A DNA stretch of 64,000 bases from Promethearchaeota archaeon (lineage in GTDB: Archaea > Asgardarchaeota > Lokiarchaeia > Sigyniarchaeales > SOKP01), in assembly GCA_019058365.1 (NCBI GenBank), contig JAHPZE010000010.1, forward strand, positions 62,001 to 126,000, read 5' to 3'. Below are positions 14,665-49,652 of this stretch, piece after piece. The notes under the pieces are model-generated. The model did no database searches. It was not told where the DNA came from and was given only the letters and a program-made list of their open reading frames with translations. The stretch's first letter is position 1. Each line of letters begins with the position of its first letter. The position numbers were made by a program, and so were the translations under genes.

Positions 14665-14753
14665 ATTAGAATTGGTGTAAATATGATTATACGAGTCAAC
14701 ATAGATAGGGATACACTGGATAAGCTTGATGAATCAGGAAAGCAGTTAAAAAT

Positions 14754-14932
14754 TTCCTTATGAAATTATAATATACATCATATTTTTTATTCTCTTAGGG
14801 ATTCTAATTATTTTCTATACAAAATTTAAAAAATAGGAAAAAAATTTTGGTCATAAAAAAATAATTCAAGGTATTAAGAAAAGATGGAAATCATTGAAAA
14901 TTACACTTTCAATAAAATTTTAAAATTAAATC
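14754..14932 (+). repeat. Dispersed repeat, copy 1 (3' tail of a membrane-anchored surface protein gene)
   Basis: The frame FPYEIIIYIIFFILLGILII, then FYTKFKK and stop, is a C-terminal membrane segment with a basic end. The same tail and following untranslated bases recur at 44753-45064 and 48797-49111. A short frame at 14683 (MIIRVNIDRDTLDKLDESGK) runs into this copy from upstream, so the junction is chimeric. Confidence 0.6.
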
Positions 14933-40892: not shown

Positions 40893-41054
40893 AGATTTTT
40901 AACAGCTAAATTATAGTTCTGGAACAAAATTTAAAAATACTCATAAAATTCATTTCAAAAATAAATATATCTTTTTTGAAAATAGTAGTCCTAATATTTG
41001 GATTTTATAGCACTTTTTGAATATAACATTTATATATTTGTTTTTTTAATTAAT

Positions 41055-41428
41055 TCATATATCTTCTATTTCTTCAATAACTTGTTCTGCTATTATGATG
41101 CATTTATTACAAAGTGAATCATTAATTGATTTATTCACTGAGTTACCAAGATAATAATCTGCATCTCTTCTATAATCGAATAATGCTTTTAATTGGTCAG
41201 CCATATAGTTCATTCCAATCGATTTTAAGGAGTTTCTAACTTCTTTATGCTGTTTTTTTTTTCTCCAAATTTTATTCCTTTTCTTTCTAGTCTTATGCGG
41301 GTTAGTAGAAAAGCAGAATAATAGGCTCTTCCAATTGACGTCCTAAATTTTGCTTTTTCATTTAAGTCATCAATAAGTAATAATTTCTTTGCTATATCTA
41401 AGAAATCCAAAGGATTAAAACCGTTAAT
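41055..41428 (-). pseudogene. HEPN-like protein with frameshift in a poly-A run, apparent ATT start
   Basis: The minus strand reads FRTSIGRAYYSAFLLTRIRL, then GEK at a run of ten A (41262-41271 region), then in another frame HKEVRNSLKSIGMNYMADQL, FDYRRDADYYL and a helix to TGA at 41055. R-A-YY-x-AF, a following H and the R-x2-ADY block are typical of HEPN-like proteins of nucleotidyltransferase pairs. No ATG lies at the 5' end; ATT 41428 is eight bases after GGTG. The upstream gene's stop is 12 bases away. Confidence 0.55.
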
Positions 41429-41439
41429 TAAGATATCAC

Positions 41440-42003
41440 CTATGCTAAATCAAGTTTAATATAAAAGTCCTTGTTATATTTAATAAATTCTTTAGAGCCA
41501 AGAAAATCTTCTGATATTTGTAATCCTTCTCTAACAAGAAGAGAAAGCTTTTTCCATAACTTTAGTTCCTTATTAAAAGGAATATAATTAAATTTTATAA
41601 GAAGTATTATATTTCTTAAATCTTCAATTTCCCAATCTTGTTGAAAACTTATTTTAACAGTAAAAGATATTTTATACTTTTCTTCAAATAGAAAAAGGTT
41701 TTTTTCTATTTCACTAATAAACCTCCGAAATGAGCCCTTTTCAAACATTGCTTCTTTTACATCCCTATCAAAAGAGATTAAAGAAGCAGGTTTTAAACTT
41801 GGATATTTATAATTTTCAGAAATTTCATCTGAATCTATAAATATAAGTTTTTGAGAGGAAGAATCATCATTTCTTGTTTTCGGAATATTAATTGAGCTTT
41901 TTGCTGAAATACCATAATTTTTATATAGATATGATTCATTTGAGGTTAATTCTTCAACGTTTTCATCTAAAGAAGTACCTTCATAACTTATTTCATAACT
42001 CAT
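41440..42003 (-). CDS. Hypothetical protein (187 aa), operon with HEPN-like gene
   Basis: N-terminal half is polar and low-complexity (SSSQKLIFIDSDEISENYKY); the C-terminal half has alternating strands and helices (FRRFISEIEKNLFLFEEKYK, DLRNIILLIKFNYIPFNKEL). Lies between two minus-strand genes with gaps of 11 and 17 bases. Family unknown; the position suggests it works with the HEPN-like protein. Confidence 0.5.
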   Translation of the reverse strand: MSYEISYEGTSLDENVEELTSNESYLYKNYGISAKSSINIPKTRNDDSSSQKLIFIDSDEISENYKYPSLKPASLISFDRDVKEAMFEKGSFRRFISEIEKNLFLFEEKYKISFTVKISFQQDWEIEDLRNIILLIKFNYIPFNKELKLWKKLSLLVREGLQISEDFLGSKEFIKYNKDFYIKLDLA

Positions 42004-44752: not shown

Positions 44753-45064
44753 TTCTACAGATTGTATTCAGGTAAAAGTTGCATTTCCTCCTATATCAGA
44801 ATCAGATGATAAGGATGATTATGTATTTCCTTTTGAAATTATGATATATATCATATTTTCCCTTTTTTAGGGATCTTAATTGTTTTCTATACAAAATTTA
44901 AAAAATAAGAAGAGAATATGGGCATTAACAAAAATTTTAAGTTATTAAGAAAAAATGGAAACATAGAGAATATTAAAATAAAATTTTCATGGTCATTATC
45001 ATTTATTTAGTGAATTTCATTATAAGTCAAAATGAACATATGATGCAATTTTTTAGCTCCTATA
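44753..45064 (+). repeat. Dispersed repeat, copy 2 (surface-protein 3' tail plus downstream DNA)
   Basis: Reads STDCIQVKVAFPPISESDDK, FPFEIMIYIIFSLF then stops; it is the decayed end of an FN3-like, membrane-anchored protein (upstream bases read YKIIAFNQYGNYST). The 3' 170 bases, noncoding, are almost identical to copy 3 at 48797-49111, ending at TTAGCTCCTATA. Confidence 0.8.
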
Positions 45065-45086: not shown

Positions 45087-46991
45087 TCATAATTTATATT
45101 TCTTAATACTTGGAAGAGATATTATATTTATATCTTCTGAAGTTACATATTGGCGTGTGAGAGATTCTTCAAATGTTGTAATAATTAATTGACTTATTAA
45201 CCCTTTTTTATGGATGTCGATTAAATAATTAATTATATTAATTCTATTCTCCAAATTGAGATGTTCTAAAGGCTCATCTAAGATAAGAAAAGGTATTTTT
45301 GTATATTTCCTTAAAAGTAGAGTTTTTATTAGTATCATTAAAATCATTTTCTCACCAGCACTCACATTTGTAAAAGGTATTTCGCTACTTGATTTTTTAA
45401 AATAAGGATAATATTTATTATCAATCGAAAGAATTCTCTCCTCATATGGAAAAAAAGCTTCCCAGATCTCTTGAATATCTATAATTAAATTGTTTAAATT
45501 AATATTCCTCTGGTTTTCTAAGACTTCATCTAGAGCATTTATTGTTATATCGCAAATAAGAGAACCTTTTATACTCTCCTTATACTTTTTCTCATATTTC
45601 AATGCATCTTTGACTTTTTCAGCAGCTTTATACTCTCTGAGAGATTGTTCAACATCCAATAATTTCTGTTCTTTCTCATCTTGTTCTTTTCTGAGCACCA
45701 TTACTCTCTGTTCTCCTAATTCTATTTTTTTATCTATTTCTTTTATTGAATTTCTGATTCTCTTTAGTCTATTTTCATCGATATTAGAAAGTATTTCTAA
45801 TGAATTAAGCACTTCTTCAAGAGATTTGACTTTATTTTTTAATGATCTTAAATTAGTCTCTTTCTTTTGAATAGTCTCCTGATTATTTTGGATTTCTTCT
45901 TCTAATTTAGAAATCTCATTAACATTATCTTCATGAATTTTAATAAATTCATCTTTCCGCAAGGACTTTTTGCATAATGGGCAAAAAACCTTTATATCTA
46001 CTTGAAAATTTATTTCCAACTTATTAATAATTTCTTTAATTTCATTTCTTTCAGCTAATTTAATATTATTCTGCATTTTCTGCTCTTTTAATTGTTGGAT
46101 ATTACTCTCGATTAATTCTATCTCATCAATAAATCCTTTATTTTTATTGCAGATTTGATTAATATTATTGATTAATTGTTGTAAATTTAACTGTTTAAAT
46201 CCTATTTCTGAAAATAATTCTGTAGTTTGTTCATACAATTCTTTTATTTTCGAAGATGCTTTATTATAATCATAATTCTCACTAAAATCAATATCTTTAG
46301 TTTTTCTAAAATCTGATAACTCATGTTCCATTCTATTCTTTTCATTCCTAATAGAATCTAGCCTTTGCTTTAAAACCTCCCTTTTTTTCTCCAGTTCAAA
46401 TTTATCTCCAATATCCTCCTTCAATTCAAATTTTTTAAGAGTTTCTATTAACTTTCTATTATCATCTCGTTTATTATTAAAAATTTTTTTTAAATCTTTT
46501 ATTAAATTTTTAAAGTCATTAATCTTACCAATCCCTATTAATTGTTCTAAATAATTTAATAGTTGGTTTTGATTTAATTTAAGGAATTTATAAGTTTCAC
46601 CTTCAGAAGAATATAGAATATTTTCAAGAAATACTTTATCTGAGTTAAAAATCTTTTCAATAAACTCAAGAATCGAGTCTTCAGTTGTAAGTTCTATATC
46701 TTTTCCTACTAATTTTGATTTTGAGACTCCATTAAATTCTCTTGTAATCTGATATTGGTTATTATTTTGCTTGAAATTCAGAATTACTTTTGTTCCTTCA
46801 GGAGAATCAATATTGATGAACTCTTTTTTATCTTTAGTTCTAACACGTCCAATCAAACCAAATATTATTGCTTCCAATACAGCAGTTTTTCCAATTCCAT
46901 TAAAACCTATAATAAAATTTACACCTTCTTTAAAAGTCAAGGGTAAATTAAAATGACATTTCCAATTTTTGAGAGTAATTTTATTTATCAA
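45087..46991 (-). CDS. Rad50/SMC-like zinc-hook ATPase (634 aa)
   Basis: Walker A GFNGIGKTAVLEAI at about residue 29; long coiled coil; hook CPLC at about residue 338; ABC signature VSAGEKM at about 543; Walker B FLILDEPLEHL at about 567; and a D-loop region before TTFEESL. It is much shorter than true Rad50 (about 880 residues), and no Mre11 lies next to it. Its start overlaps the end of the 253-residue gene by 11 bases. With a PIN nuclease at the head of the operon this looks like a defence system in which an SMC-like ATPase senses DNA and a nuclease acts. Role inferred. Confidence 0.85.
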   Translation of the reverse strand: MINKITLKNWKCHFNLPLTFKEGVNFIIGFNGIGKTAVLEAIIFGLIGRVRTKDKKEFINIDSPEGTKVILNFKQNNNQYQITREFNGVSKSKLVGKDIELTTEDSILEFIEKIFNSDKVFLENILYSSEGETYKFLKLNQNQLLNYLEQLIGIGKINDFKNLIKDLKKIFNNKRDDNRKLIETLKKFELKEDIGDKFELEKKREVLKQRLDSIRNEKNRMEHELSDFRKTKDIDFSENYDYNKASSKIKELYEQTTELFSEIGFKQLNLQQLINNINQICNKNKGFIDEIELIESNIQQLKEQKMQNNIKLAERNEIKEIINKLEINFQVDIKVFCPLCKKSLRKDEFIKIHEDNVNEISKLEEEIQNNQETIQKKETNLRSLKNKVKSLEEVLNSLEILSNIDENRLKRIRNSIKEIDKKIELGEQRVMVLRKEQDEKEQKLLDVEQSLREYKAAEKVKDALKYEKKYKESIKGSLICDITINALDEVLENQRNINLNNLIIDIQEIWEAFFPYEERILSIDNKYYPYFKKSSSEIPFTNVSAGEKMILMILIKTLLLRKYTKIPFLILDEPLEHLNLENRINIINYLIDIHKKGLISQLIITTFEESLTRQYVTSEDINIISLPSIKKYKL

Positions 46992-47742
46992 GTTTTTCCT
47001 CTTTATATACTTTTAATTTCCTAATTATTTCATCTATATCTGTAATATCAATTTCTTCTTTCATATATTCATTAAAAAGAAAATAAACAGGTTTGATGTC
47101 TTCCTTAACCAACTTTTCCATGACTTCTTTTTTATCCCCACGAAATGATCTTGATTTGTAATACATGAATTTATCTTTTAAGCTTTGATTAAAATCCTCT
47201 AGTATTTTAGGCTTCTCTATTTCTTTAATATCTTTAATTGGGGCTTTAATTACCTTAAAGAATCTTTCTCTTAATTCTACTTCATGTTTTATTATATCAT
47301 TTAGAGGTTGACGCTCTTTTTGTACAGTCTTTAGGATTTCGTCATTGTCTTTATATAATTGTTCTTTCTCTAATTTAACTGCGTTTAATTGTCCATCATT
47401 CCATACAATTATAATTCCTAATTGAGAGGGATTCTCTAAAAAGATACTCTTATATTCCTCTAATTCTTCTACTGTTAAATTATTTTCTTCAGTATTGATA
47501 ACAAAAAGTAGGAATTCCCTAGAATTAATCAATATTATAAAAGTAAATGGTAAAATTTTAAATGATTTAGAGAAATCTTGAGGAGGATTAACTTCTTTAA
47601 CTTTTAAATTTTTATTTGATCTTAAGAAATCATCTAATTTTCTAAAAAAAATAATAAATTTATTCATTTCCTCATAATCATCTATGAAATATCCCTCTAA
47701 ATTAATAAGCTCATCTGGATATTCCGAATCTTTTTCCCCCAT
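46981..47742 (-). CDS. Unknown protein between PIN nuclease and Rad50-like ATPase (253 aa)
   Basis: Residues 50-125 form an alpha/beta domain (FTFIILINSREFLLFVINTE, YKSIFLENPSQLGIIIVWND), then helical and charged to the end (DKFMYYKSRSFRGDKKEVME). Its ATG shares one base with the PIN gene stop (TAATG) and its 3' end overlaps the ATPase start, so all three are translationally coupled. Family unknown; likely the adaptor or sensor of the system. Confidence 0.65.
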   Translation of the reverse strand: MGEKDSEYPDELINLEGYFIDDYEEMNKFIIFFRKLDDFLRSNKNLKVKEVNPPQDFSKSFKILPFTFIILINSREFLLFVINTEENNLTVEELEEYKSIFLENPSQLGIIIVWNDGQLNAVKLEKEQLYKDNDEILKTVQKERQPLNDIIKHEVELRERFFKVIKAPIKDIKEIEKPKILEDFNQSLKDKFMYYKSRSFRGDKKEVMEKLVKEDIKPVYFLFNEYMKEEIDITDIDEIIRKLKVYKEEKLDK

Positions 47743-48646
47743 TATGCTTCAACCCTCTTTTTTCCATTTAAATCTTTTTCGCCTTTTACTTTAGGATATA
47801 CTCTCTGAAGCCATTTATAGTGTGCCAGACATTTCTGAATTCTCATTCTTTCATTTCCAATCTTAAGTTCTTTTTTAAATAAAAATTCATCAAATTCTTG
47901 GATTTTTTGAAATTTACAACATTTAAAAATAGTTGTCAGGTACGAGACAGCAGTGATAGGTATAATATTAAAATTGGTATACTTCATACAAGATAATTCA
48001 ATCTCACCAATATCTTTTTGATAATTAATAAAATCATATAAACTAACATCATCTGTAACTAATAAAAACTTATGATCTGGATTTATTTTCATTCCTTCAA
48101 GTGCTAATAAAAATAATGAGAGATCTGGTTCTTCAATTTCCCTTTTTTTTTTTTTATTGTATATTGATCAGCAATAACCTTTAATTCATCAAGTCTTTTT
48201 TTGTCAACAGAATTATAATTAAGATATTTTTTATACTCTGCTTTAATCTTATTCTTATTTTCAATAAGATAGCGTTTAGCAGTCTGATTCTCTAATTTTA
48301 ATAAAAATTTTACCTTTTTATAAATAGTCTCGTTGAACTCTTTATCATATACTGATTTCGAACAAAAGAATTTATCTCCTTCACAACATTCACAGACCAT
48401 TTTTAATAGATGGCTGAAAATCTTAAAAAAATCTTTAAAATCGAGTTGCTTTTTTAAATTAGTGCAAAAATTCAAAAAATTAATTAGGAAATTGGAATCA
48501 CATATAGTATATCTTTTATTTTCACATTTCTCATTAACTCTATCACAAAAACTCATAAAAAGACTCTGATTCTTATCTTTATTATAAAATTTCTTCTCTA
48601 TAAAGATTAATGTATAATTTTTATTTAAATTTAGACTATTCTGCAT
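47742..48646 (-). pseudogene. PIN-domain nuclease, frameshifted in a run of thirteen A
   Basis: Two frames join at the poly-A run (48143-48155): the first (ATG 48646) ends DQYTIKKKK, and the second continues REIEEPDLSLFLLALEGMKI, NPDHKFLLVTDDVSLYDFIN. Together they have the PIN acidic set: ICDSNFLINFL, VYDKEF, EEPDLSLFLLAL, VTDD. About 300 residues, so longer than VapC. Homopolymer error, phase-variable switching, or decay could each explain the break. First gene of the operon with the unknown protein and the Rad50-like ATPase. Confidence 0.65.
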
Positions 48647-48796: not shown

Positions 48797-49111
48797 TTCT
48801 ACAGACTGCATTCAAGTAAAAGTTACATTTCCTCATATATCAGAATTAAAAGATAAGGAAGATAATGTATTCCCTTATTGAAATTGTGATATATATAATA
48901 TTTTTCGCTCTTTCAGGGATTGTAATTGTTTTCTATGCAAAACTTAAAAAATAAGAAGAGAATATGGGCATTAACAAAAATTTTAAGATATTAAGAAAAA
49001 ATGGAAATCATAGAGAATATTAAAATAAAATTTTCATGGTCATTATCATTTATTTAGTGAATTTCATTATAAGTCAAAATGAACATATGATGCAATTTTT
49101 TAGCTCCTATA
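48797..49111 (+). repeat. Dispersed repeat, copy 3
   Basis: Reads TDCIQVKVTFPHISELKDKE, then one frameshift, then IEIVIYIIFFALSGIVIVFY and AKLKK-stop, followed by the same noncoding block as copy 2. This copy keeps the tail best. Copies 2 and 3 flank the PIN/unknown/Rad50-like operon in direct orientation, 4 kb apart. Confidence 0.8.
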
Positions 49112-49157: not shown

Positions 49158-49652
49158 ATGACTGAACAAACTAGCCTCGATGAAATTTCCGAATTAGATT
49201 TTGAAATCATAAAGAAATTAAGTATAGATGGAAGAATCTCGCATAGACAACTTGCTAAAGATTTGGGTAATAAATCCCCTGTAACAATTAAAAATCACGT
49301 TGAGAATTTGGAAAATCTGGGTATTATCATAAATTATGGAGCCAAGATTAATTATGAAAAGTTAGGGTATGGAATCATGGGTATTATCGAAGTAACAATT
49401 TCTAAAGGAAAAATGTTTGAAGTAGAAGAAAAGATCGCTGAGAATCCTAACGTTTTTGGGGTTTATGATATTACAGGAACTTATGATGCCCTCATATTAG
49501 CAAGATTTAAAACACGAGAAGAACTAAGTAAAATGATAAAAGAAATTCATAAATCTCCTAATGTAGAGCGTACTAATACCCATTTTGTATTAAATACCAT
49601 TAAAGAGGCTAGTTCTTTTGTCACTTTAATAGAAAAAGGTGAAACGAAATAA
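49158..49652 (+). CDS. Lrp/AsnC-family transcription regulator
   Basis: N-terminal helix-turn-helix (DFEIIKKLSIDGRISHRQLA, SPVTIKNHVENLENLGII) and C-terminal RAM (ligand-binding) domain (GYGIMGIIEVTISKGKMFEV, NVFGVYDITGTYDALILARF). 164 residues, normal for the family. These archaeal regulators respond to amino acids. It lies upstream of the glutamate genes, so a link to nitrogen is possible but not shown. Confidence 0.9.
   Translation: MTEQTSLDEISELDFEIIKKLSIDGRISHRQLAKDLGNKSPVTIKNHVENLENLGIIINYGAKINYEKLGYGIMGIIEVTISKGKMFEVEEKIAENPNVFGVYDITGTYDALILARFKTREELSKMIKEIHKSPNVERTNTHFVLNTIKEASSFVTLIEKGETK

What the first reader, a model, noticed from the sequence alone, without database searches (positions are those of the whole stretch)
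45087..48646. PIN nuclease - unknown protein - Rad50-like ATPase operon: possible new defence system
Three genes overlap or touch (TAATG and 11-base overlap). The ATPase has Walker A, CPLC zinc hook, signature and Walker B but is only 634 residues and has no Mre11. SMC-like ATPase plus nuclease plus unknown adaptor is a layout shared by several DNA-sensing defence systems, but I do not know this exact trio. It is flanked by two direct 310-bp repeats, which suggests mobility.
Basis: partly seen in the sequence, partly recalled or inferred. Interest (0 to 1): 0.75.

Follow-up and report, generated by a model that had tools for sequence, protein, structure and literature searches.

The report
PIN-nuclease variant of Lamassu-like defence
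A three-gene cassette in a Lokiarchaeon joins a DNA-clamp ATPase, an unknown middle protein and a PIN nuclease; the same trio recurs in other archaea and in bacteria, some of it next to known anti-virus systems, so it is probably an uncatalogued relative of the Lamassu immune systems.

Summary
The trio is real: PIN nuclease, ~250-aa middle protein, ~634-aa Rad50-like ATPase. The same order occurs in eight further loci: an own-genome paralogue, three other Lokiarchaea, three Chloroflexota and one Myxococcota bacterium. It is rare and patchy (4 of 228 genomes of the phylum). In two Loki genera the trio alone forms a 93%-identical 3.7-kb block inside unrelated flanks, so it moves as a unit. Bacterial copies sit beside or inside DISARM, Hma-type methylase, DarTG, TRIP13 and type IIG genes. 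The genome has two separate Mre11-Rad50-type pairs; unlike all seven Mre11-linked Rad50s examined, the trio ATPases lack the switch histidine. The layout equals Lamassu/ABC-3C (effector, middle component, LmuB-like ATPase). But the middle protein matches no Pfam, NCBIfam or PADLOC family, PADLOC's LmuB model also hits Mre11-linked Rad50s, and PIN is absent from a 2023 review's Lamassu effector list. I call it a new Lamassu-like variant: the ATPase-middle pair senses foreign DNA and releases a PIN nuclease. Function is inferred, not shown. The window's PIN gene is frameshifted at a 13-A run (error or recent mutation). The 310-bp repeats exist but are surface-protein-gene remnants, not transposon ends.

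The parts
48104..48646 (-). PIN nuclease gene, 5' part; probable true start ATG at 48556. Carries the first PIN acidic motif (CDSN) and the second-acid motif (YDKEFNET)
   Evidence: ORF; aligns to intact 273-277 aa PINs; fold of the intact paralogue matches PIN/VapC
48143..48155 (-). 13-A homopolymer at which the PIN reading frame is lost
   Evidence: longest homopolymer of the window; frames on both sides continue the PIN alignment
47742..48092 (-). PIN nuclease gene, 3' part (frame open from 48167); carries PDLSL and VTDD motifs and ends TAATG into the next gene
46981..47742 (-). middle protein, 253 aa; predicted degenerate restriction-endonuclease-like core with helical ends
   Evidence: ORF; homologues in 8 other loci; no Pfam/NCBIfam/PADLOC family; AF2 pLDDT 70; weak Foldseek hits
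45087..46991 (-). Rad50/LmuB-like ATPase, 634 aa, overlapping the middle gene by 11 bases
46884..46907 (-). Walker A GFNGIGKT (residues 29-36)
45972..45983 (-). zinc hook CPLC (residues 337-340), invariant CPxC in all nine trios
45348..45362 (-). ABC signature SAGEK (residues 544-548)
45270..45287 (-). Walker B LILDEP with catalytic Glu kept (residues 569-574), followed by family motif LEHLN
45165..45179 (-). switch (H-loop) position TTFEE (residues 605-609): His replaced by Phe
   Evidence: absent in all trio ATPases, present as SH/TH in 7 of 7 Mre11-linked Rad50s
44753..45064 (.). direct repeat copy 1, downstream of the ATPase; decayed 3' end of a surface-protein gene plus its spacer
48797..49111 (.). 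direct repeat copy 2, upstream of the PIN gene, 92% identical to copy 1
49076..49076 (.). point where nucleotide homology with the trio-free locus of three same-genus relatives begins; synteny break

Best explanation
This is a mobile three-gene immune cassette that works like Lamassu (ABC-3C) systems. Inferred mechanism: two ATPase subunits joined at the zinc hook form a short Rad50-type clamp with the middle protein docked on it, which holds the PIN nuclease inactive. Foreign or aberrant DNA (ends, replication intermediates) bound by the clamp with ATP changes its shape and frees or clusters the PIN nuclease, which then cuts nucleic acid, more likely RNA (VapC-like, growth arrest or abortive infection) than DNA. 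Because the switch histidine is replaced by Phe/Tyr, ATP turnover is probably slow, so the clamp acts as a slow, switch-like sensor. Shown here: gene order, motifs, PIN fold, phylogeny, mobility, defence neighbours in bacteria. Inferred: complex formation, trigger, target, immunity.
For: Same-order trio in 9 loci, 2 domains. PIN acidic residues D, E, D and VTxD(D) conserved, and an AF2 model (pLDDT 81) matching VapC/PAE0151 PINs. ATPase closest to PADLOC LmuB PDLC03859, aligned nearly full length (1e-18 to 4e-28; in the own-genome paralogue mad3 scores slightly better), ~610-665 aa with zinc hook as described for LmuB. Trio ATPases branch apart from Mre11-linked Rad50s and lack the switch His that all of those keep. 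Trio-only 3.7-kb block at 93% in two genera with unrelated flanks. Patchy distribution. DISARM DrmMI and DrmA flank one bacterial trio; an Hma-type methylase, DarTG, TRIP13 and a type IIG methylase adjoin others.
Against: No functional data. The middle protein has no detectable similarity to PADLOC, Pfam or NCBIfam families, LmuC included. PDLC03859 is not specific in these archaea: it also hits Mre11-linked Rad50s, some with better scores. Defence neighbours are clear in bacteria but weak in the Loki loci (one C5 methylase at C41, HEPN genes in the window). No trio in viral contigs, and neither the ATPase nor the middle protein was found in plasmid records. The window's own PIN gene is frameshifted.
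Confidence: 0.62

Rival explanations
1. A DNA-repair module: a Rad50-like ATPase whose Mre11 nuclease has been replaced by a PIN/FEN-type nuclease, processing DNA ends.
For: The ATPase is Rad50-like with zinc hook; the PIN superfamily includes DNA flap nucleases (general knowledge); in other Asgard genomes a related short ATPase is paired with a ~520-600-aa PIN-like protein, some beside a UvrD-like helicase.
Against: Genome already has two Mre11-Rad50-type pairs; rare, mobile, multi-copy in one genome, defence neighbours in bacteria; switch His lost.
Confidence: 0.15
2. A genuine member of the Lamassu superfamily whose middle protein is LmuC and whose PIN is simply another LmuA effector, diverged beyond sequence recognition (a narrower form of the best explanation, so the two probabilities overlap).
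For: Same order LmuA-LmuC-LmuB, similar sizes, zinc hook, LmuB best hit.
Against: No LmuC or LmuA match; LmuB model non-specific; Walker B Glu kept where Lamassu LmuB generally has Gln; no LmuC structure among the fold hits.
Confidence: 0.35
3. A toxin-antitoxin-like or addiction cassette: PIN toxin restrained by the other two proteins, kept for its own sake rather than for immunity.
For: VapC-like fold; tight overlaps; mobility; a frameshift in the toxin-like gene of the window would fit loss of a costly toxin.
Against: A dedicated DNA-clamp ATPase is not needed for a TA pair; position among defence genes in bacteria.
Confidence: 0.13
4. About this copy only, compatible with any of the above: the window's copy is a decaying remnant (pseudogene), and only the C41 paralogue works in this organism.
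For: PIN frame lost at the 13-A run; synteny break and decayed repeats around it.
Against: Frames on both sides of the run stay open and conserved; a HEPN-like gene 7 kb away is also broken at a 10-A run, which suggests homopolymer errors in the assembly; middle and ATPase genes intact.
Confidence: 0.3

Closest known systems
Lamassu / DdmABC / ABC-3C superfamily (LmuA-LmuC-LmuB)
   Same: Three genes in the order effector, middle component, short Rad50/SMC-like ATPase with zinc hook; ATPase best PADLOC hit LmuB; found in bacteria and archaea (PMC10586767)
   Different: PIN effector not in the effector list of that review; middle protein matches no LmuC/ABC-3C family; Walker B Glu kept; switch His replaced by Phe/Tyr
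CARD-type operon of Bacteroidetes UBA1952 (PMC10924106)
   Same: VapC-like PIN nuclease as presumed effector together with an SMC-like RecN ATPase
   Different: Described there as similar to a CARD-encoding system; no described relation to this middle protein; sequences not compared here
Mre11-Rad50 (SbcCD)
   Same: ATPase core: Walker A, zinc hook, signature, Walker B; PDB hits are archaeal Rad50
   Different: PIN instead of Mre11, extra middle gene, shorter than the genome's 900-aa Rad50, switch His lost, separate branch
VapBC toxin-antitoxin
   Same: PIN fold and acidic motifs
   Different: Partnered with an ATPase and a middle protein, not with VapB; PIN protein twice the size of VapC

Membership tests
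Lamassu / ABC-3C | LmuB: short (~650 aa) Rad50/SMC-like ATPase with zinc hook | tested here: met
   634 aa, CPLC, PDLC03859 aligned nearly full length; but the model is non-specific in Asgard genomes
Lamassu / ABC-3C | Gene order effector - middle component - ATPase | tested here: met
   nine loci
Lamassu / ABC-3C | Middle component of the LmuC / ABC-3C MC families | tested here: not met
   no Pfam, NCBIfam or PADLOC hit at E<=1 to any such family; only sequence profiles were tested, LmuC structure not compared directly
Lamassu / ABC-3C | LmuA effector from the listed classes (REase, Mrr, HNH, protease, hydrolase, TIR, SIR2 and others) | tested here: not met
   effector is PIN; list in PMC10586767 has no PIN; that list is given as examples
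Lamassu / ABC-3C | Walker B Glu to Gln in LmuB (general, not universal) | tested here: not met
   DEP kept
Lamassu / ABC-3C | Anti-phage or anti-plasmid activity needing all parts | not testable with these tools
   needs an experiment
Mre11-Rad50 | Adjacent Mre11 nuclease | tested here: not met
   no Mre11 in any trio; Mre11-Rad50-type pairs on C30 and C13 of the same genome
Mre11-Rad50 | Switch histidine (SH/TH) after Walker B | tested here: not met
   TTFEE in the window; 7 of 7 Mre11-linked Rad50s have it
PIN-domain nucleases | PIN fold with conserved acidic residues | tested here: met
   conserved D, E, D and VTxD(D); Foldseek hits to VapC/PAE0151, prob 0.97-0.99, E>=0.02, TM 0.5-0.6 over the PIN; no Pfam PIN hit by sequence
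Transposon / insertion element | Transposase and terminal inverted repeats | tested here: not met
   none beside the trio; only direct repeats

The most novel reading that the evidence does not exclude
An undescribed family of DNA-clamp immune modules with exchangeable outputs: one ATPase lineage paired with a PIN nuclease in archaea and bacteria, with an ECF-sigma-like protein in a sister bacterial clade (a DNA sensor wired to transcription), and a parallel two-gene ATPase-PIN version in other Asgard archaea. The middle protein is a restriction-endonuclease fold that lost its active site and became a regulator.
Probability: 0.3. Interest if true: 0.78.

Novelty: new variant of a known kind. 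Interest (0 to 1): 0.55.

Why it matters
If right, it adds a PIN nuclease output and a new middle protein to the Lamassu-like class, extends that layout to Lokiarchaea with a mobile cassette, and gives small, cloneable bacterial versions (Chloroflexota genome G343; Deltaproteobacterium L032) to test how a short Rad50-like clamp controls an effector. Such trios are missed by current annotation: PADLOC recognises only the ATPase, and ambiguously.

Tried and rejected
Viral contigs with the middle and ATPase profiles, and plasmid records with the ATPase and middle proteins: no relatives. Solved structures by sequence: only Rad50/SMC-type ATPases for the ATPase, nothing for the other two. Foldseek with the middle protein: TDP2/DNase-like hits have TM 0.2 and are rejected; Holliday-junction resolvase and other PD-(D/E)XK folds recur (prob 0.93-0.97 for most resolvases, TMt 0.4-0.57), accepted only as tentative because the model is weak (pTM 0.51). 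Homology of the trio's middle proteins to those of the sigma-type operons: hhalign probability 0.1%, not supported. Inverted repeats around the cassette: only A+T-rich background matches. PADLOC LmuB as sole proof of Lamassu: rejected, non-specific. Weak middle-protein hits in G047, G115, G270 and G417 were not accepted; the G270 and G417 regions show no trio. Repeats as transposon ends: rejected.

Full report
SETTING. The window is G000:C24:62001-126000 of a 4.74-Mb genome bin (54 contigs). Two relatives carrying the trio, G117 and G131, correspond to records titled Candidatus Lokiarchaeota, so this is a Lokiarchaeal genome.

OBSERVATION. On the minus strand a PIN gene, a 253-aa gene (47742-46981) and a 634-aa ATPase gene (46991-45087) follow each other with a TAATG junction and an 11-base overlap. 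The ATPase has Walker A GFNGIGKT, zinc hook CPLC, signature SAGEK and Walker B ILDEP. The PIN gene is not one frame: 48646-48104 and 48092-47742 are separated by a shift at a run of 13 A, the longest homopolymer in the window. Both halves align to intact 273-277-aa relatives and carry the PIN acids. A HEPN-like gene 7 kb away is likewise broken at a 10-A run, so homopolymer error in the assembly is plausible; a recent real mutation cannot be excluded.

CONSERVATION. With the 253-aa protein as query, 4 of 228 genomes of the phylum respond, including a paralogue in the same genome on C41; a profile adds no convincing further one. All five Loki loci have PIN, middle and ATPase in that order. The ATPase profile finds the same order in two Anaerolineae and one Deltaproteobacterium (labelled Myxococcota by the taxonomy tool), and the middle-protein profile adds a fourth bacterial genome, G343, from the Chloroflexota sample. 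Middle proteins of two Chloroflexota are hit by the Loki-only profile (4e-13, 6e-8), and two bacterial PINs by the Loki PIN profile (2e-16, 3e-12), so the trios are homologous part by part. Prevalence is low in the samples searched: 2 of 400 genomes convincingly in the phylum of L034 and 1 of 297 in the phylum of L032.

MOBILITY. G117 and G131 are in different genera, yet share 3717 bp at 93.1% identity that begins and ends just outside the trio; no other nucleotide similarity was found between the two 18-19-kb regions. In five same-genus relatives lacking the trio, the Lrp-type regulator right of the window's trio (49158-49652) lies next to a glutamine-synthetase-like gene (a small gene intervenes in some). 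In the window that gene is absent, and nucleotide homology with three of these relatives starts only at 49076, inside the right-hand repeat. The 310-bp direct repeats are non-coding; the first part matches the 3' end of a surface-protein gene in G116, and a third partial copy lies at 14752-14921. In G117 a different 102-bp, 76% direct repeat flanks the trio; in G131 it sits between repeated surface-protein genes. Recombination between repeats is therefore a possible route, but no transposase or inverted termini were seen.

DEFENCE CONTEXT. L034: trio between DISARM DrmMI (directly upstream) and, after one gene of Orf5/DUF262 type, DrmA. L031: HmaB-type DNA methylase directly upstream. L099: DarT and DarG directly downstream, a TRIP13-type AAA protein directly upstream, a type IIG-like methylase further on. 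C41: a C5 methylase and an HSP90-like ATPase close by. The window's neighbours are weaker: HEPN genes.

PARTS. PIN: AlphaFold model of the C41 paralogue, pLDDT 81, best matches PAE0151, VapC and other PINs, prob 0.97-0.99, although E-values are only 0.02 and above. Middle protein: pLDDT 70, pTM 0.51; helix, three strands, helix, two strands, the order of the restriction-endonuclease core. Recurrent weak matches are Holliday-junction resolvases and other PD-(D/E)XK folds. Only L034 keeps a D...ELK-like motif; the others have lost it (read from the alignment and the sequence). I read it, tentatively, as a dead nuclease fold turned regulator. ATPase: PDB relatives are archaeal Rad50. In a 33-protein tree the nine trio ATPases form one group (93/89), the M. 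gastri one (a PIN-like candidate trio, not counted among the nine) sits at the base of the sigma-type clade (100/100), and Mre11-linked Rad50s are apart. In every trio ATPase the switch histidine is Phe or Tyr (T[T/A][F/Y]EE), whereas 7 of 7 Mre11-linked Rad50s have SH or TH. The genome's own Mre11-Rad50-type pairs are on C30 (365 + 900 aa) and C13 (435 + 697 aa).

COMPARISON. Lamassu systems are an effector LmuA, a middle component LmuC (lacking in some) and a ~650-aa Rad50-like LmuB with zinc hook; the superfamily includes ABC-3C (PMC10586767). The trio fits this layout and its ATPase is LmuB-like in PADLOC. But PDLC03859 also hits Mre11-linked Rad50s in these archaea, C13 of this genome among them; the middle protein hits no family; PIN is not in that review's effector list, which is given as examples. 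The original ABC-3C classification paper was not in the library, so I cannot say whether it already contains a PIN type. Hence: works like Lamassu, probably; membership, unproven.

BROADER PICTURE. (a) In other Asgard families a ~610-620-aa hook ATPase without switch histidine is encoded directly before a ~520-600-aa protein with an N-terminal PIN-like region in most cases (L125, L127, L128, L130, L131; L129 lacks the first motif as annotated here, and the L126 partner is not read as one clean ORF). (b) Relatives of the trio ATPase in Actinomycetota, Chloroflexota, Acidobacteriota and Myxococcota have an ECF-sigma-like protein in the effector slot, best supported in L070, L071 and L080. Both suggest short DNA-clamp ATPases with exchangeable outputs; whether the middle proteins of (b) are homologous to the trio's is not supported.

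VERDICT. A real, conserved, mobile cassette, most likely immune; new variant of the Lamassu-like kind. Function, trigger and target are inference.

Noticed in passing
L070:4284-7785, L071:4377-7818, L080:2178-5674; weaker in L036, L037, L042, L051, L052, L078: Operons with an ECF-sigma-like protein, a ~300-460-aa middle protein and a ~600-aa Rad50/LmuB-like ATPase in Actinomycetota, Chloroflexota, Acidobacteriota and Myxococcota: a possible DNA sensor wired to transcription. Sigma domains were confirmed only for L070, L071 and L080.
   Followed up: partly
L125:4410-8045, L127:1958-5442, L128:4257-7888, L129:5206-8628, L130:917-4358, L131:821-4409: Two-gene systems in other Asgard families: hook ATPase of ~615 aa followed by a ~520-600-aa protein that mostly has an N-terminal PIN-like region and, in one, TPR-like repeats; the ATPases lack the switch histidine.
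   Followed up: partly
window 41000-41500 (- strand): HEPN-like gene frameshifted at a 10-A homopolymer; with the PIN gene, the second frame loss at a long A run in this window, suggesting homopolymer errors in the assembly.
   Followed up: partly
L027:6452-7558 and L028:14000-15025: ParB-N proteins near two of the Loki trios, a hint that these copies lie in integrated plasmids or similar elements.
   Followed up: no
L026:12335-15413: Next to the G117 trio: another coiled-coil ATPase (AAA_23-like, 625 aa) and a AAA protein, possibly a further uncharacterised defence operon.
   Followed up: no
L102:2891-6299 (G000:C13): Second Mre11-Rad50-like pair (435 + 697 aa) in addition to the pair on C30; similar pairs occur in other Asgard genomes and match the PADLOC LmuB model.
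   Followed up: partly
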